Below, piece after piece: positions 51,596 to 64,000 of a stretch of 64,000 nucleotides of DNA. The stretch comes from Ruegeria arenilitoris (GTDB taxonomy: Bacteria > Pseudomonadota > Alphaproteobacteria > Rhodobacterales > Rhodobacteraceae), in the NCBI RefSeq assembly GCF_013032445.1, contig NZ_WQCA01000010.1, forward strand, positions 62,001 to 126,000, given 5' to 3'. Below the pieces are notes generated by a model. The model was not told the origin of the DNA, did no database searches, and was given only the letters and a program-made list of their open reading frames with translations. Within the stretch, counting starts at the first letter, position 1; the number at the start of each line of letters is the position of its first letter. Made by a program: the position numbers and the translations under genes.

Positions 51596-51847
51596 ATGAC
51601 AGAAGACGCGTTCTTTGATGCACAGTTTCCCGGAACAGCCCATCGGCTGCGTGAATTACGGGCGCGGGACAAGGAATTCGACCAGATTTGCGCTGATTAC
51701 CACGAGGTCTTTTCGGAACTGGCCTTGGCCCCGCAAACGGCGGGCAGCACACAAACCCGATATCTCGCTGATCTGGCCGAAAGCGTCTCGGATTTACGCA
51801 ACAGCATCGAAAAGCGGTTGCAGGCCCCTGACCGCAACAATGAGTGA
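51596..51847 (+). CDS. Small hypothetical protein ahead of the sulfatases
   Basis: The 83-aa, charged, helical protein (AHRLRELRARDKEFDQICADYHEVFSEL) has no membrane segment. Its heptad-like pattern faintly resembles YdcH/DUF465 proteins, but I do not claim membership. It precedes the first sulfatase gene by 10 bases and so heads the probable operon. A longer frame from 51560 also exists; the ATG at 51596 is a guess, as no ribosome site is clear. Confidence 0.55.
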   Translation: MTEDAFFDAQFPGTAHRLRELRARDKEFDQICADYHEVFSELALAPQTAGSTQTRYLADLAESVSDLRNSIEKRLQAPDRNNE

Positions 51848-51857
51848 AAGGTTGATC

Positions 51858-53495
51858 ATGAAACTTCGTACCTTACTGCCCCTGTTGATCCTGACTGCCA
51901 GCCCTGCAGTTTCTCAGGACAGTCCAATCATTCACGACGGAGAGTTTGAGTATTTACGCGCACAATTCGGCGAGACCTGGGATGCACAGGACATCGAAAT
52001 CGACGCCAAGCTTGCCGAGATCCGCGCTGCGAACGGAGGCCAGCCCCCCAATTTTCTCTACATCCTGATCGATGACATCAGCTTTGGCCACATGGGTGAC
52101 CGCAAGCTGAACTACGTCACGGGGATCGAAACGCCGAACATCAACCAACTGGCGACCGAAGGCCTGTCGTTGATGCGTATGTATACCGAGCCTTCCTGTA
52201 CCCCCACACGAACAGCAATGCTGACGGGTCGTCATCCAGTGCGTGCAGGCGTCACCGAGGTCAAAGTGGCTTTGGTGGGCGAGGGTCTGGCGGCCAGCGA
52301 GGTCACTTTGCCCGAGGTACTGAAACAAGCGGGTTACTCTACCACTCATGTCGGCAAGTGGCATCAGGGCGATATCGAAGAAGCCTACCCTCACAATCAG
52401 GGATTTGACTGGGCTGCCTTCCCCTTGCATCAACAAGTCCAGCTGAGCCTCATGACCCCCGAGGCGATGCAGGCCAATGCCATGCTCGGCTATGTTCCCG
52501 AGGGCCAGAACAACCAATTCCTACTGGACGAGCGGTTCAAACCCTACGGTCTGGTCACCGGAGTCGAGGCCGAAGCCGGCGGGTTGGCACGCGAAGTCGA
52601 CATGGCTGCAGGCGAGGTCTGGACGCAGGCAAAATACGAAGAAATGAACCTGCGCTATCAACAGCAGGCGCTGGAACAACTCCAGCGCGTTGCGGCTGAG
52701 GACGAGCCGTTCTTCCTGCAATACTGGCCGCTTTATCCGCTGAACTTCGTCTACCCCGATCAGGCAATCTCGCGGAACGGCGGATTCCATGCGGACAAGC
52801 TGCAACTTTTGGACGGTTGGATCGGCGACGTGCTTGAGGCGCTCGACGAAACCGGAAAAGCAGACAATACGATCGTAATCGTCATGGCAGACAACGGCCT
52901 GATGTATCAGTTCGAGGGCACCTCTGGTCTGAACCAACTGATTTACCGCGGCGGCAAAACTCAGCACCTTGAAGGCGGCGTCCGAACAGATGCCTTTATC
53001 CGCTGGCCCAATGTCATCGAGCCCAACAGCGCAGCTGGCGACATCTTTCACGTCTCGGACATCTTCACCACGATGGCCCGGATCGCCGGGGCGACCGACT
53101 ATATCCCGCGCGACCGCGTGATTGACGGCATCGACCAGACCGCTCTGCTGCTGAACGGCGAAGGGCACGGGCGGCGCGACTATGTGTACGTCTATGAAGG
53201 TCCGGTGTTGCGGTCGGTCGTCAAGCAAGAGTTCAAGATGCACCTGCCCACGCCGGGCCAGCCCGGCGCTGCAGCCCCAACCTTCAACATCTATCGTGAC
53301 CCACGTGAGGAACACCCACTGGTCGGGTACTCTCTTTGGGCCGGAGCATCGTTTCAGGACATGATCAAACGCCACCAGAAAATGATTGCGAAATATCCGC
53401 ATTCGGAAATCGGCAAAGGCCAACCCTATGACGGGATTGAAAACCTGCGCCCGGAATCGGAACTGACACGAGACGTGTTCATGAGTTGGCAGTGA
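51858..53495 (+). CDS. Exported arylsulfatase 1 (formylglycine type)
   Basis: The 545-aa enzyme has a signal peptide (LLPLLILTASPAVSQ). Metal-binding D72-D73 lie in LIDDISFGHMG, and C114-T-P-T-R118 is the CxPxR sulfatase signature whose Cys is converted to formylglycine. THVGKWHQGD and VIVMADNGLMYQFEG add the other active-site residues. It should remove sulfate from an organic ester in the periplasm. It shares an N-terminal block (HDGEFEYLRAQFGETW...NGGQPPN) with the next gene. AAGG lies before the ATG at 51858. No maturase gene is in the window. Confidence 0.88.
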   Translation: MKLRTLLPLLILTASPAVSQDSPIIHDGEFEYLRAQFGETWDAQDIEIDAKLAEIRAANGGQPPNFLYILIDDISFGHMGDRKLNYVTGIETPNINQLATEGLSLMRMYTEPSCTPTRTAMLTGRHPVRAGVTEVKVALVGEGLAASEVTLPEVLKQAGYSTTHVGKWHQGDIEEAYPHNQGFDWAAFPLHQQVQLSLMTPEAMQANAMLGYVPEGQNNQFLLDERFKPYGLVTGVEAEAGGLAREVDMAAGEVWTQAKYEEMNLRYQQQALEQLQRVAAEDEPFFLQYWPLYPLNFVYPDQAISRNGGFHADKLQLLDGWIGDVLEALDETGKADNTIVIVMADNGLMYQFEGTSGLNQLIYRGGKTQHLEGGVRTDAFIRWPNVIEPNSAAGDIFHVSDIFTTMARIAGATDYIPRDRVIDGIDQTALLLNGEGHGRRDYVYVYEGPVLRSVVKQEFKMHLPTPGQPGAAAPTFNIYRDPREEHPLVGYSLWAGASFQDMIKRHQKMIAKYPHSEIGKGQPYDGIENLRPESELTRDVFMSWQ

Positions 53496-53600
53496 AGCAG
53501 GTCCGTAGAAATTTCTGCACAAATATCATAATGTTTTAATGTGAGGTCAGTTTTGCGGCATCAGTCGCAAGGCGCGTCTGACACCGGAGGGGGATGCGAA

Positions 53601-55268
53601 ATGAGTTTGAAATGGTTGATTGCGCTTTCGACAGGTCTGGTCGCCGCACCAGCGTTGGCACAGGATAACCCCATTCAACATGATGCCGAGTTCTACATTC
53701 TACAGGCCCAACACGGCGAACAGTGGGCTCAGGATGACACCGCCGTCGATGAAGCCCTGGCTGCGTTTCGGGACAGCAACGGGGGAAAGCCTCCGAACAT
53801 CGTCAGCGTTTTAATCGACGACATGGGGTTTGGAGATATGGGAATACCCGAACTCAACGCCGTGCGAGGGTATGAGACTCCAAACATCAACGATTTCTCG
53901 GATCAAGCCATGCGGATGGTTCGGATGTACACCGAGCCGTCCTGCACGCCGACCCGCGTCGCACAGATGACCGGGCGACTGCCAGTTCGCATGGGCATGG
54001 GCGATACGACCGTCGATATAGCAGGATTTGGTCTGCCCGAGAATGAAGTCACCCTCGCCGAGGTGCTGAAACAAGCAGGCTACGCCACCAGCCATGTGGG
54101 CAAATGGCACATGGGGGACATCGCCGAAAGCTGGGCGATGAACCAGGGGTTTGATTACGCCCAGCACGCGATTCATCAGCAAGGCCAACTGACCATCTTC
54201 AATGACGATGCCATAAAGGAGCAAGTCACGGTCGCCATCCGTGACTATGACGAAAAATACACTCTCGACGATTGGTTCCGACCGGACGCTGCCGCGATGA
54301 TGACGGTCATCGAAGGGGAAACCGGGGGGCCGATCCGCGAAATCCGAATGGAAACCGGTGAGCGCTGGAACGCCGCAAAATACGATGAAATGAACCAGGC
54401 GTTTCAGGACAAGACGCTGGAGGAGCTGGATCGCCTCGCGGGCGGTGAAAATCCATTCTTCCTGCAATACTGGCCGATGATCCCACTGGACAACACGCGC
54501 GCCGGACGGTCAGGACCTGAAAGCGTGAATGGCGGTTTGTACGTGGACAAAATGCAACTACTGGACCAGTGGTTAGGCGACCTGTTCGCTCGCTTGGATG
54601 AGTTGGGCCTGACGGAAAACACAGTCGTTGTTGTCATGGGGGATAACGGCCATTTCACCAAATACGCTCCGCAATCCGGGTTCACGCCGCTGATCTATGC
54701 GGGTGGCAAAGGTGACACGACCGAGGGCGGCGTCCGCGTCGATGCTTTCATTCGCTGGCCCGGTATGATTGAGGCCGACGGTTTGCTGAACAGCATCATT
54801 CACGTCTCGGACCTCTATACCACGCTATCTCGATTTGCTGGAGCCGACCAGCACATTCCGCGGGATCGTTTGGTGGACGGTGTAGACCAATCCGCGGCCC
54901 TGCTGTTCGCCGATGAATCCAAAGCCCGCCGCGACCACGTCATCGTCTATTCGGTGAACAAACCTGAGGCGATAGTGAAAGACCAGCTAAAGCTGAAGCT
55001 GCCGGGACCCGGAGAAAGCGCGATACTGGCAAAGTTCTTCGACCTCTACCGGGACACGCGTGAAGAGTATTCAGTCTCGACCGAGGTCGGTGCCTGGGGA
55101 GGACAGGAATTCGCACGGATTCTGGGCCGCCACATGGCCCGCAAAGAGAAATTCCCCGATACAACGCCCGCCTATGGCGTGCCTTATGAAGGGATTGAGA
55201 ACATCCGCCCTGAAACCCAACAAGCGGTCGAGGCGTTCATGATCAAACGCGCCTCACCTCAGCAATAA
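53601..55268 (+). CDS. Exported arylsulfatase 2 (formylglycine type)
   Basis: The 555-aa paralogue of the previous gene has a signal peptide (WLIALSTGLVAAPALA), D73-D74 in LIDDMGFGDMG, and C115-T-P-T-R119 as the formylglycine site. THVGKWHMGD follows, then VVVMGDNGHFTKYAP. The shared N-terminal block (HDAEFYILQAQHGEQW...NGGKPPN) shows recent common origin. Segments around DWFRPDAAAMM and TREEYSVSTEVG differ and may give another substrate. GGAGGGGG fixes the ATG at 53601. Likely same operon, 105 bp downstream. Confidence 0.88.
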   Translation: MSLKWLIALSTGLVAAPALAQDNPIQHDAEFYILQAQHGEQWAQDDTAVDEALAAFRDSNGGKPPNIVSVLIDDMGFGDMGIPELNAVRGYETPNINDFSDQAMRMVRMYTEPSCTPTRVAQMTGRLPVRMGMGDTTVDIAGFGLPENEVTLAEVLKQAGYATSHVGKWHMGDIAESWAMNQGFDYAQHAIHQQGQLTIFNDDAIKEQVTVAIRDYDEKYTLDDWFRPDAAAMMTVIEGETGGPIREIRMETGERWNAAKYDEMNQAFQDKTLEELDRLAGGENPFFLQYWPMIPLDNTRAGRSGPESVNGGLYVDKMQLLDQWLGDLFARLDELGLTENTVVVVMGDNGHFTKYAPQSGFTPLIYAGGKGDTTEGGVRVDAFIRWPGMIEADGLLNSIIHVSDLYTTLSRFAGADQHIPRDRLVDGVDQSAALLFADESKARRDHVIVYSVNKPEAIVKDQLKLKLPGPGESAILAKFFDLYRDTREEYSVSTEVGAWGGQEFARILGRHMARKEKFPDTTPAYGVPYEGIENIRPETQQAVEAFMIKRASPQQ

Positions 55269-55299
55269 CGCGAAGCCGAACGCAAATCAGGAGGTGCAA

Positions 55300-56544
55300 A
55301 TGGTTGGAAACATTCTTTTCGCTCTCGGCTTGGTTGTCTCATTAGGGATCGGGTTCGTCTATTTCCGGGATCTGGGCGACATCTCGCAGATGCTGTTGAA
55401 GGTAAAACGCGAGAATATGGTGCGGTTTATCCGGAACGAATACCGTTTGATCGCAATTGGCTTAGGTGCCTTTGCCGTTGCAACGCTCGCGCATTTCCTG
55501 ATGGGCGGCGGCCCGTTCTGGGTGTGGATCATCTCTGCGCTGCTAGTGCTTTTTCTTTACGGCTTTCCCTATGTCTGGGTTCATCTGGGCCTGCGCAACC
55601 AGATGAACGATGCAGCCTTCTTTCCCATCAGCGAAGCGCAGAAGTATGTCGGACCGACCGCACCGGTCATCGTGATTGAAAACAACGGCCACGCCCGCGC
55701 GCACCCCGACGCGCAGATCATGCGCCCTCATCTGGCCGGGGATGTGGACGGGTTGGGCGGCGAGGACGTGGTCATGACCTATTGCGCAATGGCTAACCTC
55801 GGGCAGGGATACGCGCCACGGATTGAAGGCAAGCGGCTGGACCTCGAGGTCCTGGCCCAACACGGCAACAACCTGATCCTGCGCGACAATGAAACAGGAG
55901 AGCCGATCCAACACATTTATGGCTTCCGCGAAGCTGACCGCGCCGAGAACGCCGACGGTCCTGCCTGCCCTGTGAAACCCGAGGCCCAGATGAAACCCTG
56001 GCCGACCTACCGCATGACGTTTCGCGGGTTCCAAAAGGCTTTTCCCGACGGAGAGGTATTTCTGAACAAACCTTCCTCAAACCCATTGCTGCGGCTTCTG
56101 GATATGGTCACCGAGATCACCTTTGGCTGGGGGATCAGTCGTCAACATCAAGAAGATGCGCCGGTGATGGACAACATGGATCGCTCGGATGATCGACTGC
56201 CGAACAAGACCTATGTCTGGGGGATCACGATCGACAAGGATGCCACCTGCTGGACCGATGATTTCGTCGTGGACAACGATTGGGTCGTCAACGCTACCGT
56301 TGGCGGGCGTGATGTCGTCGTCAGTCTGGATCCTAAATACGAGAGCCTCGGGGTCTGGTACAATGACAGTGGCCAACAGGTCACGCGCTGCGACTTCTGG
56401 GGAATGTCTGATCAGGGTCAACTAAAACGGGTCGAGACGCTGCGTGCAGGCGTGTTCTGGCACGTCTGGTCCGAGTTTTTCCCGGAGACGGACATCAATC
56501 GCGTGGGCACGCGCGCGGAAACATCTGGTACAGTAGCAGCATAA
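55300..56544 (+). CDS. DUF3179 membrane protein
   Basis: The 414-aa protein has an N-terminal helix, then two further hydrophobic helices (about 43-85). A large soluble domain matches DUF3179: PVIVIENNGHARAHPDAQIM, VVMTYCAMANLGQGY and the closing GVFWHVWSEFFPETD. Function of the family is unknown. AGGAGG lies six bases before the ATG at 55300. It follows the second sulfatase by 31 bases, so it is part of the same unit and may work on the same compound. Confidence 0.75.
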   Translation: MVGNILFALGLVVSLGIGFVYFRDLGDISQMLLKVKRENMVRFIRNEYRLIAIGLGAFAVATLAHFLMGGGPFWVWIISALLVLFLYGFPYVWVHLGLRNQMNDAAFFPISEAQKYVGPTAPVIVIENNGHARAHPDAQIMRPHLAGDVDGLGGEDVVMTYCAMANLGQGYAPRIEGKRLDLEVLAQHGNNLILRDNETGEPIQHIYGFREADRAENADGPACPVKPEAQMKPWPTYRMTFRGFQKAFPDGEVFLNKPSSNPLLRLLDMVTEITFGWGISRQHQEDAPVMDNMDRSDDRLPNKTYVWGITIDKDATCWTDDFVVDNDWVVNATVGGRDVVVSLDPKYESLGVWYNDSGQQVTRCDFWGMSDQGQLKRVETLRAGVFWHVWSEFFPETDINRVGTRAETSGTVAA

Positions 56545-56600
56545 CGCCGCTTCACACGGGCTGCAGGCCGGTCAGGACGGTGACAATAAGGAGGGACAAG

Positions 56601-57353
56601 ATGGCATTGAAACACGGCTTGAAAGGCGGCGCGATCGCTGCGGCCATGCTGGCATCGGCGACAACGACGGCCTCGGCGCAGCAATCCGGGTGGTCATATG
56701 AGGCTACGATTTATCTTTTTATGCCCGAGACCGAGACCAGTTTTGAAACCCCTGCGGGAAAGGTCGACGGAACGCTAAGCTTTTCGGATGCGCTGGAGAA
56801 CCTCGACTTTGCCTTTATGGGCGCGCTAGCTGCTACCAATGGTCAATGGAGTGTGCTGGCGGATTACAACTATACCAACCTTTCCTTCGGAAATACCTTG
56901 GGCGGACCTGCGAATTCAGAACTGGAGACCTCGGTCAAGACGCAGTTTCTGACAGCCTTGCTAGGCTACCGGGTGCGCGATGATCAATCGGTAAAGGTGG
57001 ATCTGGCGGGTGGTTTCAGATGGTACAGCACTGACACGGAATTTACCCTGACACCGGAAAGAGCCCCCTCGCGAACAAATACTGCCGACGACAGCTGGTT
57101 CGACCCGGTGGTCGGTGTCCGCGCCCGGTTTTCCCTGTCGGATTCGTGGACCAGCACCGCCTACGTGGATTACGGAGGCTTTCGCAGCGGCAGTCAGACC
57201 TGGTCGGTTTTGCTGACGGCAGACTACGCCATCAACGAAAGATGGGTACTGCGGGGTGGATACCGCTATATCTCGTTCGATCACGACATTAACGGTAGCG
57301 AATACAAATTCGATCAGTCCGGCCCACTATTCGGGGCGACCTACAGATTCTGA
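56601..57353 (+). CDS. Outer-membrane beta-barrel protein
   Basis: The 250-aa protein has a signal peptide (KGGAIAAAMLASATTTASA) and alternating amphipathic strands ending in the Phe-terminated GATYRF, typical of outer-membrane barrels. An internal WSVLLTADYAINERWVLRGGYRYISFDHD stretch resembles OmpW/OmpA-like barrels. AAGGAGGG fixes the ATG at 56601. It closes the sulfatase group and could be its porin. That role is inferred. Confidence 0.78.
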   Translation: MALKHGLKGGAIAAAMLASATTTASAQQSGWSYEATIYLFMPETETSFETPAGKVDGTLSFSDALENLDFAFMGALAATNGQWSVLADYNYTNLSFGNTLGGPANSELETSVKTQFLTALLGYRVRDDQSVKVDLAGGFRWYSTDTEFTLTPERAPSRTNTADDSWFDPVVGVRARFSLSDSWTSTAYVDYGGFRSGSQTWSVLLTADYAINERWVLRGGYRYISFDHDINGSEYKFDQSGPLFGATYRF

Positions 57354-60855: not shown

Positions 60856-61986
60856 TTACATTTTGCACTCGGCCGCGTAGGCGTCAGAGTGGTTTTCCAA
60901 CGCAACGCCGAGGATCTTGTTGGTGAAAACGTCACCTTCCTTGATCACTTCGCGGGCATAGATGGTTTGAACAGGGTGGTGGTTCGGGCCAAAGCTGAAC
61001 TCACCGCGGGTGCTGTCAAACTCGGCCGCACGCAGGGCTTCGCGGAACGCGTCCGCATCCGACGGATCAGCCTTGTCCAGCGCAGACAGCAGCAGGTTCG
61101 CTGTGTCGAAGCCCTGGCTGGCATAGAGCGAGGGCAGACGTCCGTATTCCGCCTGGAAGCTTTCAACAAACGCCGAGTTGGTCGGGTTGTCGATGTCTTT
61201 ATTCCACTGCGAGGTGTTCACCACACCTATCGCCGCGTCGCCAACCGCCTGCAGGATACCCTGATCAAAGCTGAAGGCTGGGCCGACCACGGGCTTGTCG
61301 ATGCCGCTGTCGGCATATTGCTTCAGGAATGAAATCCCCATGCCGCCGGGCAGGAAGAAAAACACGCTGTCCGCATCGCTGGCGCGGATCTGCGCGATCT
61401 CGGCGGCATAGTCGGTTTGTCCCAACTCGGTATAGACTTCACCGGCCAGATCACCCTCGAAGAACCGTTTATAACCGGTCAGAGCATCCACGCCCGCCGG
61501 ATAGTTCGGGGCAAGAATAAAGCTGTTCTTGTAGCCCGCACCATTGGCATAGGCCCCGGCGGCCTCGTGCAGGTTGTCATTCTGCCAGGCGACGTTGAAA
61601 TAGTTCTGATGACAGCCTTTTCCGGCCAAAGGCGACGGACCTGCGTTGGGCGACAGGTAGAACACGTTCTGGTTCACAGCAGCTGGCACAACCGCCATCG
61701 CAAGGTTGGACCAGATGATGCCGGTCATGACATCAACCCGCTCAGACTGGATCATCTTGTCGGACAGTTGCACCGCGATGTCCGGCTTGCGCTGGTCATC
61801 CTCGATCACGACCTCGATGTCGTCACGGCCCGATTGCGCTATGGCCAGCATGAACCCGTCGCGCACATCGATGCCCAACCCGGCACCACCACCAGACAGC
61901 GTGGTGATCATACCAACCTTGACCTCGGCCAGCGCGCCTGTGGCGCACAGCGCGGAAACCGCAACGGCTGCTAGAAACTTCTTCAT
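60856..61986 (-). CDS. ABC substrate-binding protein (LivK-like)
   Basis: The 376-aa periplasmic binding protein has a signal peptide (FLAAVAVSALCATGALA) and a type I periplasmic fold: VKVGMITTLSGGGAGLGIDVRDGFMLAI and LAPNYPAGVDALTGYKRFFEGDLAGE. The ligand is unknown; branched-chain amino acids, urea or aromatic acids are all imported by such systems. The second ATG, at 61986, is chosen since AGGGAG lies seven bases upstream. It heads the five-gene operon livKHMGF. Confidence 0.88.
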   Translation of the reverse strand: MKKFLAAVAVSALCATGALAEVKVGMITTLSGGGAGLGIDVRDGFMLAIAQSGRDDIEVVIEDDQRKPDIAVQLSDKMIQSERVDVMTGIIWSNLAMAVVPAAVNQNVFYLSPNAGPSPLAGKGCHQNYFNVAWQNDNLHEAAGAYANGAGYKNSFILAPNYPAGVDALTGYKRFFEGDLAGEVYTELGQTDYAAEIAQIRASDADSVFFFLPGGMGISFLKQYADSGIDKPVVGPAFSFDQGILQAVGDAAIGVVNTSQWNKDIDNPTNSAFVESFQAEYGRLPSLYASQGFDTANLLLSALDKADPSDADAFREALRAAEFDSTRGEFSFGPNHHPVQTIYAREVIKEGDVFTNKILGVALENHSDAYAAECKM

Positions 61987-62170
61987 CTTCATCTCCCTTC
62001 GCTGGTCTTTTCGACGCAACTTATGTCAGCCTTCACGGCGTTTATTCTGCTACACTGACGAAGCGGTCTTTTTCCACTCTGCCAATCGTGCAAACAATCA
62101 CCGATCGCACCCCCGCCGTCGAGGGCGTTTTAAACCTGAACCGCTGAATTTTCCTAAAAAATGCCCCGCG

Positions 62171-62894
62171 TCAGAAGGTCAGAGTGATCATGATGGCGTA
62201 GTTGTCGGCCAGCATCTCTGCATCCGTTCGGTTAAACTTGACCGTCGGCAAGGCCTGTATGCCGACCTGCGCCGTCCCGTCGAAGAACTTTGCCAGATCG
62301 ACGATCAGATGTACCTCATGGTCGCCGTCCGCGAAAACATCCGGCAGCAGCATGAATTCAATCTCGCGGGCGTCTTCCGAGAACCCCACATGATAGACCA
62401 GCGGGGAAACGTCATTCCCTTGTATCAGCGCGCCTTCGACGACCACGAATTCACACCCGACCTTCCAGTTCCACGCCATCTGGCTCTTAGGATCTAAGTT
62501 CCCCCGCGCCGCAATCGAAACAATTGCTGTAGGATCAACCCCGATCAGGAACTGAACGGTATCGACAGATTTAAGAGGCACTTCGGGCAAAGTGATCGAA
62601 TGCGTCTTTTCCACATTGTAGAATGTGCAACAGGAGATAGCTGTCGGTCTCAACATAGGTTTCGTCTGCATGCCCCAAGGAAAGGTTGCTGATGTAGAAA
62701 CTAAAGTCCCGAGCCCTGAATTGCCCTTCCCCACTCGGATTTTCATTGACAATCTGATTGTAGATCAAAGGCGCCTCCCCCATTTGCGCGTGAAAATTCA
62801 GCGTGGCCGATATGGCTATCTGCTGCCCGAACGTCAGAAGGAACCACCCCGCGATCTGGACTATTGCAAACTATAAACCAGGGATCGGTTTCAT
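62171..62894 (-). pseudogene. MbnP-family protein, frameshifted and with an early stop
   Basis: The open start is ATG 62894 with GGAGG upstream, overlapping the previous stop (TGATG). It reads seven codons, then TAG at codon 8, then a signal-like segment and FHAQMGEAPLIYNQ...FSFYISNLSL. Near 62624 the frame shifts by one; deleting one base joins it to VEKTHSITLPEVPLKSVDTVQFLIGVD and MAWNWKVGCEFVVVEG, the conserved MbnP blocks, to the end ITLTF. MbnP proteins are copper-linked periplasmic partners of the di-heme MbnH. Two lesions make it nonfunctional unless the assembly is wrong. Confidence 0.7.
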
Positions 62895-63352
62895 CAGGAA
62901 CCTCCATCAAACGGACCGGAAAATTGCGATTTGGCCGGGAACGCCTCGTCCGTCAGCGTGTGCAGAAAGGCGGTGAAGGTCTGCATTTCATCGGGCTTCA
63001 TGTGCAGGCCGCCAGTATCCTGCCCCATCTCATCCGGGTGCTGGATCGGCAGCAGTGCCTGTTCCTCAAGCGATTTCGCGCGTCCGTCGGTGAAGGCCAG
63101 CGCCTGTACGTGGCAGGTGGCGCAGGACACCTGATTGTTGCCTGGCAGGATCGGGTCATAGAACAGGTGTCGGCCCTCCGCGAAGACCTCTTCCGTCAGT
63201 GGATTGTCGGGTGGCACGGCGAACCGACCGAACACAACGGTGCCGGGAAATCAGAAATCGGCGTTGCCACCGGGGTCGCGCGTGCGATCCCAATTCTCCC
63301 ACCCCGCCGCCGCAAGAGCTGCAGCGACGAGTATCAGAAGCACCTAGCGCAT
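62894..63352 (-). pseudogene. MbnH/MauG-type di-heme protein, internally deleted
   Basis: From ATG 63352 (GGGGGG upstream) the frame meets TAG at codon 3, then a signal-like LLILVAAALAAA segment, TGA at codon 34 (63251), and then GRFAVPPDNPLTEEVFAEGRHLFYDP. The first heme motif is CATCH (in QVSCATCHVQALAFTDGR). After that only LEEQALLPIQHPDEMG and KPDEMQTFTAFLHTLTDEAF survive, so the second heme and most of the roughly 390-residue protein are gone. A GTG after the first stop could still start it. It is translationally overlapped with the MbnP gene. Confidence 0.7.
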
Positions 63353-63368
63353 AAAGCCCCCCGCGCCG

Positions 63369-64000
63369 CTAGTGGTGGTGGACAAAGCCCGAGCCGAACA
63401 GGCCTTCCAGGTTTTCCACCCCTTTGTTGTAACGATCCTTGATGTTGACCGTCGCCAGACGCTTTCCGGTTTCAAGATCATGGACTGAGATCGTACGGCC
63501 GTTCAGACCGGCCATGAAATCCACATCCGTCGGATCGTTGTCCGCGCTGTTACCCAAATTCAGAAGACTGTTTTGAACGGCAACCAAATCACGGCCCGAG
63601 GCCGAGGTGAAAAAAGATCATATGGTGCGCGCCCGGATCGGCCACGATATCCGGCCCGCTGAATACCAGTTCGGGCAAAGCTGCCAACTCGTAACCTTTC
63701 ACTACAATGGGTAGAGCATGTGAGATGTGCAGCTTATCCTCGGCACCATAGAATTCCAGCGGCACTGCGGTTTCGTTGGCAACGCCGCTATAGATCACCT
63801 CGGCCTCACCAAACGTCTTGGAGTCGGCGTCATACGGCACTTTCCACGTCTCTAACACAAACATGGTGCTGGCCAGGATGGCGGGCTCAAAATCCGGATG
63901 CATGTCGGGGCGTGCAAACAAAACCTCAACCGGAGAGGACGGGAAGTTCAGCAGCTTTTCCTTCTCGACTGTGGTGTTTTTTGATGGGCTCCGGCGTGTT
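63369..64000 (-). pseudogene. Beta-propeller (YVTN-type) protein, frameshifted, cut by window edge
   Basis: The minus frame is open from the right edge and reads EKLLNFPSSPVEVLFARPDMH, then ILASTMFVLETWKVPYD and PDIVADPGAHHMIFF. It then hits a TGA at 63589 because of a run of six T (63610-63615). Removing one T restores FTSASGRDLVAVQNSLLNL and the end SVHDLETGKRLATVN...FGSGFVHHH. The pattern is a periplasmic propeller, a known companion of MbnH-like operons. The 5' end lies outside the window. Confidence 0.65.

What the first reader, a model, noticed from the sequence alone, without database searches (positions are those of the whole stretch)
62171..64000. Decaying MbnP/MbnH/beta-propeller operon
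Three consecutive minus-strand genes resemble the propeller, MbnH-type di-heme enzyme and MbnP partner set. All carry lesions: a homopolymer frameshift, two stop codons, large deletions, an early amber stop and a second frameshift. The TGATG overlap between MbnH and MbnP shows they once formed an operon. Neighbouring genes are intact, so the loss seems specific to this system. It may mark a recent loss of copper- or peroxide-linked tryptophan chemistry.
Basis: partly seen in the sequence, partly recalled or inferred. Interest (0 to 1): 0.7.

Follow-up and report, generated by a model that had tools for sequence, protein, structure and literature searches.

The report
Broken copper-protein operon in Ruegeria
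A marine bacterium carries the ruined remains of a three-gene set that in its close relatives probably makes a copper-binding protein, the haem enzyme that modifies it and a propeller-shaped partner protein; the ruin is ordinary gene loss, but the intact set deserves testing.

Summary
Minus-strand remnants of a propeller gene, mbnH and mbnP fill window 62171-64000 and run on to about 64398 on the same contig. Against intact syntenic operons in close relatives they show deletions of 272, 99 and 561 bases, six one-base indels and early stops; the second haem motif is gone. dN/dS is raised in these genes and not in four neighbours. It is a true pseudogene cluster.

Of 54 genomes in the genus, 17 have MbnP: 15 a complete operon, plus the window's genome and G013, whose remnant is broken differently. 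No second MbnP was found in the window's genome.

The live operon is the more interesting part. In 38 of 39 named loci the propeller is followed by mbnH and mbnP. Its best structural match is SBP56, the methanethiol oxidase family, whose genes sit with mauG and a copper chaperone. MbnP folds like Methylosinus MbnP. Its WxW motif is invariant beside mbnH (37 of 37) and WxR in the two loci without mbnH, though the window's remnant keeps WxW. Function remains inferred.

The parts
63369..64000 (-). Propeller pseudogene, 3' part (the 5' part lies outside the window, to about 64398 = L003 10398). Whole gene: three +1 indels, 272-bp deletion, one alignment-dependent stop
   Evidence: tblastn of the intact 432-aa ortholog; alignment with G003/G004
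62894..63352 (-). mbnH pseudogene (di-haem MauG/MbnH family): amber at codon 3, +1 and -1 indels, 99-bp and 561-bp deletions; first CXXCH kept, second CXXCH and PYMHDG-like motif absent
   Evidence: TIGR04039 E 2.4e-18; PF03150 E 2.5e-16
62171..62894 (-). mbnP pseudogene: amber at codon 8, one +1 indel; WxW still present; 6 of 32 invariant residues changed
   Evidence: PF20243 E 3.3e-20
62892..62896 (-). TGATG: overlap of mbnH stop and mbnP start, relic of the operon
60856..62019 (-). Intact downstream flank: ABC transporter substrate-binding protein, in the same place in G003 and G004

Best explanation
The feature is a three-gene operon (propeller, mbnH, mbnP) that has become non-functional in this Ruegeria lineage. 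Shown: it sits where close relatives have the intact operon, all three genes are broken in several ways, selection on them is relaxed, and no second MbnP was found in the genome. Inferred for the intact operon: MbnH, a di-haem enzyme of the MauG/MbnH family, oxidises a tryptophan in its partner MbnP, most likely the second Trp of the WxW motif, to make a copper-binding site; and MbnP supplies copper to, or shares copper chemistry with, the SBP56-like propeller, much as mtoX is thought to depend on a copper chaperone and a MauG homologue. My confidence is about 0.97 for the decay and about 0.4 for this functional model.
For: Intact syntenic operons in G003 and G004. Lesions in all three genes. 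On the G000 branch propeller dN/dS is 0.20-0.24 against 0.04-0.06 on the sister branch, and mbnH 0.27-0.65 against 0.07-0.20, over 8 outgroup/sister combinations; four nearby genes are not relaxed. Invariant residues changed: 13 of 110 in the propeller (worst intact homologue left out in turn 6 of 146) and 6 of 32 in MbnP (worst 2 of 34). No other MbnP in the genome. Function: same order and strand in 38 of 39 named loci whose DNA continues past the propeller; propeller's top PDB match 2ECE, E 9.5e-11; SBP56 Pfam E 5.6e-4; profile-profile E 2.3e-5, with invariant His79-His80 aligned to the SBP56 His-His pair; MbnH best PDB sequence match 6E1C, two CXXCH in 38 of 38; MbnP model matches only 7L6G at E<=0.001; WxW in 37 of 37 MbnPs beside mbnH, WxR in the orphan mbnP of G022 and in the G013 remnant.
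Against: No expression, copper or mass-spectrometry data. The intact proteins score below the curated cut-offs of TIGR04039 (247.6 against 362.85) and TIGR04052 (49.2 against 140), and the propeller below the SBP56 gathering score (19.2 against 34). The confident profile match to SBP56 covers the N-terminal half only (probability 76%), and 566 PDB chains match the propeller model at E<=0.001. Two WxR cases are few, one of them is a pseudogene, and the window's own remnant keeps WxW although its mbnH is broken. mbnP branch dN/dS is noisy (0.22-0.51 against 0.10-1.04). Locus L073 has the propeller without mbnH or mbnP. Species relations rest on rpoB alone. The window's genome is a draft of 82 contigs and its reads were not seen.
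Confidence: 0.75

Rival explanations
1. Sequencing or assembly error: the operon is really intact in this strain.
For: Some one-base indels lie in or near short homopolymers; the assembly is a draft of 82 contigs.
Against: Deletions of 272, 99 and 561 bp, two clear ambers and changes at invariant residues; four nearby genes in the same contig have no internal stops; raised dN/dS cannot come from a few miscalls.
Confidence: 0.02
2. Partial survival: the 193-aa residual mbnP frame (62171-62752) is still made and useful.
For: It keeps the WxW motif and much of the MbnP domain (PF20243 E 3.3e-20, residues 48-161).
Against: The amber and the indel cut off the N-terminal part, which includes the predicted N-terminal helix of the intact protein; 6 of 32 invariant MbnP residues are changed, two of them close behind WxW; the modifying enzyme lost its second haem region.
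Confidence: 0.06
4. The remnant is the trace of a recent, failed gain of a mobile operon rather than the loss of an established one.
For: Patchy distribution: 17 of 54 in the genus; Alpha- and Gammaproteobacteria and one Gemmatimonadales MAG.
Against: Same position in G003 and G004, which group with G000 in the rpoB tree; dS between remnant and G003 is 0.37-0.55, against 0.43-0.85 for four nearby genes; no propeller match in 72,556 plasmid records.
Confidence: 0.1

Closest known systems
MbnP/MbnH pair (TIGR04052/TIGR04039, PF20243) of Methylosinus trichosporium; PDB 7L6G (MbnP) and 6E1C (di-haem enzyme, recalled as MbnH)
   Same: Di-haem MauG-like enzyme next to a small WxW partner; MbnP fold; best sequence match 6E1C
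   Different: Order here is propeller-mbnH-mbnP; the 12 MbnP loci fetched from other genera of the family have mbnH beside mbnP in 12 of 12 and no propeller within about 1.5 kb; scores lie below the NCBIfam cut-offs. Methanobactin genes were not looked for.
mtoX-SCO1/senC-mauG operon (SBP56 methanethiol oxidase), Hyphomicrobium sp. VS and Ruegeria pomeroyi (PMC5739008, passages read)
   Same: Propeller encoded with a MauG-like di-haem enzyme and a copper-related partner; His-His pair aligned
   Different: The propeller is only a distant SBP56 relative, below gathering score; MbnP in place of SCO1; this genome has a separate true SBP56 gene
CorA/CorB and MopE/SACCP of methanotrophs (PMC3912023 and PMC3621798, passages read)
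   Same: Copper-binding partner with a kynurenine made from tryptophan, encoded beside a di-haem peroxidase homologue
   Different: PMC3621798 calls MbnP not markedly similar in sequence to MopE or CorA; no such modification has been shown here

Membership tests
MbnP (PF20243 / TIGR04052) | Pfam gathering score | tested here: met
   Intact ortholog 149.6 bits, larger remnant piece 73.2 bits; cut-off 27
MbnP (PF20243 / TIGR04052) | NCBIfam TIGR04052 curated score | tested here: not met
   49.2 bits against 140; so an MbnP-domain protein, not a member of that equivalog
MbnP (PF20243 / TIGR04052) | MbnP fold | tested here: met
   The only PDB matches at E<=0.001 are the six chains of 7L6G
MbnP (PF20243 / TIGR04052) | WxW motif | tested here: met
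   37 of 37 MbnPs in named operons; kept in the remnant
MbnP (PF20243 / TIGR04052) | Copper binding through a modified tryptophan | not testable with these tools
   Needs purified protein
MbnH (TIGR04039) | NCBIfam curated score | tested here: not met
   247.6 bits against 362.85; still the best-scoring NCBIfam family, MauG being next at 167
MbnH (TIGR04039) | Two CXXCH haem motifs in the intact enzyme | tested here: met
   38 of 38 named loci; the window remnant keeps one
SBP56 / methanethiol oxidase (PF05694) | Pfam gathering score | tested here: not met
   19.2 bits against 34; not filed as a member
SBP56 / methanethiol oxidase (PF05694) | Overall fold | tested here: met
   Best PDB match 2ECE, E 9.5e-11, TM 0.63/0.60; many other propellers match less well
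SBP56 / methanethiol oxidase (PF05694) | Four conserved histidines proposed as copper ligands | tested here: inconclusive
   One His-His pair aligns; the other two were not placed with confidence
SBP56 / methanethiol oxidase (PF05694) | Methanethiol oxidation | not testable with these tools
   Needs an enzyme assay

The most novel reading that the evidence does not exclude
The intact propeller-mbnH-mbnP operon is an undescribed copper oxidase system: a distant relative of methanethiol oxidase whose copper, and possibly a cofactor made from the invariant Trp134 and Trp275, are installed by an MbnH/MbnP pair in place of MauG and a SCO1 chaperone. The window shows it being discarded.
Probability: 0.3. 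Interest if true: 0.7.

Novelty: new variant of a known kind. Interest (0 to 1): 0.45.

Why it matters
As far as the passages read here go, the role of MbnP/MbnH pairs is largely open. A stable three-gene operon that adds an SBP56-like propeller offers a candidate client for the pair, and the orphan MbnP with WxR points to the second Trp as the residue on which MbnH may act. Intact and broken operons in closely related Ruegeria make the function testable by comparing strains. The broken copy itself is ordinary gene loss.

Tried and rejected
Error as the sole cause was rejected. A second MbnP in the genome was sought and not found; the other TIGR04039 matches, on four other contigs, are below cut-off and were not identified further. 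Remnants beside the flanking ABC gene were sought in stretches of 15-16 kb from G002, G006, G016, G026 and G027: none of the three proteins was found; G027 gave one 57-base DNA match that lies downstream of mbnP. A plasmid copy was sought: no propeller match; 82 plasmid records matched window 61000-64000, and the 15 listed rows matched only the ABC gene part. Profile comparison of the propeller with SBP56 used 28 SBP56 sequences; one setting failed because of my wrong flag, local mode gave the N-terminal half, and a looser setting gave a full-length alignment with low confidence.

Rows dropped: propeller alignment A2 holds 34 of 42 loci (8 left out by me as near-duplicates or cut by contig ends); the MbnP motif count used 37 of 38 (L077 is cut by its contig end); alignment A3 holds 35 of these 37. 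L073 counts against a strict three-gene rule.

Papers: passages only in PMC3621798, PMC5739008, PMC3912023, PMC9426467 and PMC9601215; all others as search listings. That this operon is undescribed rests on the searches in an open-access library without most subscription journals; one search listed 30 of 60 papers.

Full report
What is there. The window is positions 62001-126000 of contig C2 (258,634 bases) of a 5.24-Mb genome in 82 contigs. On the minus strand, from 62171 to the window end and on to about 64398, lie the remains of three genes: propeller, mbnH and mbnP.

How it is broken. The closest intact counterparts, G003 and G004, have the same flanks on both sides and three open genes of 432, 372 and 240 codons between them. 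Aligned with G003, the propeller remnant has three one-base insertions and a 272-bp deletion, plus a stop beside an insertion that depends on the alignment; the mbnH remnant has an amber at codon 3, a one-base insertion, a one-base deletion, and deletions of 99 and 561 bp, the second of which removes the second haem motif; the mbnP remnant has an amber at codon 8 and a one-base insertion. The TGATG overlap survives.

How old. On the branch leading to G000, propeller dN/dS is 0.20-0.24 against 0.04-0.06 on the sister branch; mbnH 0.27-0.65 against 0.07-0.20; mbnP 0.22-0.51 against 0.10-1.04, which is noisy (eight outgroup and sister combinations each). Four nearby genes have pairwise dN/dS of 0.04-0.11 between G000 and G003 or G004. 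If drift without selection gives 1, the propeller values mean freedom from selection for roughly a sixth of the branch; this is my own rough arithmetic. Of residues invariant in the intact homologues, 13 of 110 still present in the propeller remnant and 6 of 32 in MbnP are changed; the worst intact homologue, left out in turn, has 6 of 146 and 2 of 34. One change is at propeller His80.

How common. MbnP was found in 17 of 54 genomes of the genus, and not in 37. Fifteen have all three genes complete (in G022 one alignment runs over the gene's own stop). The other two are G000 and G013. G022 has, besides its complete but divergent operon, an orphan mbnP. In G013, at the place where others have the operon, the first 260 bases of the propeller run straight into the end of mbnP: a different break, hence a separate loss. 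In an rpoB tree G000 groups with G003 and close to G004, and G013 with G011, apart from G000 (one gene, support values not shown). In a sample of 394 genomes of the family 12 had MbnP, G000 included.

What the live operon is. With an alignment of 15 intact propellers, 42 named loci were found, 16 of them Ruegeria; the others include Leisingera, marine Gammaproteobacteria such as Colwellia, Alteromonas, Thalassotalea and Vibrio sagamiensis, and one Gemmatimonadales MAG. In three loci the contig ends in the propeller. In 38 of the other 39, mbnH and mbnP follow on the same strand; L073 is the exception, and in L077 the mbnP match is cut by the contig end. The 12 MbnP loci from other genera of the family have mbnH beside mbnP in 12 of 12, and no propeller in the fetched flanks of about 1.5 kb. 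So there appear to be two arrangements.

The propeller. It has no NCBIfam match at E<=0.001 and one sub-threshold Pfam match, SBP56. Its predicted structure (mean pLDDT 83.3) matches 2ECE, an SBP56 protein, best among solved structures, with many other propellers behind it. Profile comparison aligns the N-terminal half (E 2.3e-5, probability 76%) and sets invariant His79-His80 on a His-His pair of SBP56; PMC5739008 proposes His89, His90, His140 and His412 of methanethiol oxidase as copper ligands (passages read), and I take the pair to be the first two. Trp134 and Trp275 are the only invariant tryptophans in 34 propellers. The window remnant lost Trp134 with the 272-bp deletion.

MbnH and MbnP. 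The intact MbnH best matches the solved di-haem enzyme 6E1C, which I recall as MbnH of Methylosinus trichosporium. In 38 of 38 named loci it has two CXXCH motifs and a PYMHDG-like motif. The MbnP model matches only MbnP of Methylosinus trichosporium, 7L6G, at E<=0.001. WxW is present in 37 of 37 MbnPs beside mbnH. In the orphan mbnP of G022 and in the G013 remnant, both without mbnH at the locus, the second Trp is Arg; the G000 remnant still has WxW. Two cases are few, but they fit a role of this Trp that depends on MbnH.

Mechanism. I think it most likely that MbnH oxidises the second Trp of WxW in MbnP to build a copper site, and that the propeller is a copper protein served by this pair, as is proposed for mtoX with SCO1 and a MauG homologue. 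Gene identities, order, conservation and decay are shown; modification, copper and client are inferred. In the window's genome no other MbnP was found, while a true SBP56 gene remains.

Verdict. Loss of such an operon is ordinary and has happened at least twice in the genus. The subtype itself, with its propeller, is the part that deserves attention.

Noticed in passing
window 51615-57353: Two sulfatases, a DUF3179 protein and an outer-membrane barrel protein. Sulfatase and DUF3179 genes lie near the mbn genes in 8 of 18 regions in the part shown; G003 and G004 have them further out.
   Followed up: partly
L003 15253-19390 (beyond the window): Sulfopyruvate decarboxylase alpha subunit, a histidinol-dehydrogenase-family protein and an arylmalonate-decarboxylase-like protein; they suggest organosulfonate catabolism next door (pathway recalled, not tested).
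   Followed up: partly
L059 (G013:C12:693500-713000): Second, independent remnant of the same operon: propeller start fused to mbnP end.
   Followed up: yes
L056 (G022:C36): Orphan 244-codon mbnP without mbnH or propeller in the fetched stretch, with WxR in place of WxW; the same genome has a complete divergent operon in L058.
   Followed up: partly
L073: Propeller gene with no mbnH or mbnP match in the fetched locus, about 6 kb on each side (Paracoccaceae MAG); it is also the propeller with most changes at otherwise invariant positions (6 of 146).
   Followed up: partly
G016:C7:103982-105139 and G002:C1:277435-278574: G016 and G002 orthologs of the flanking ABC substrate-binding protein are listed with one stop inside each.
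   Followed up: no
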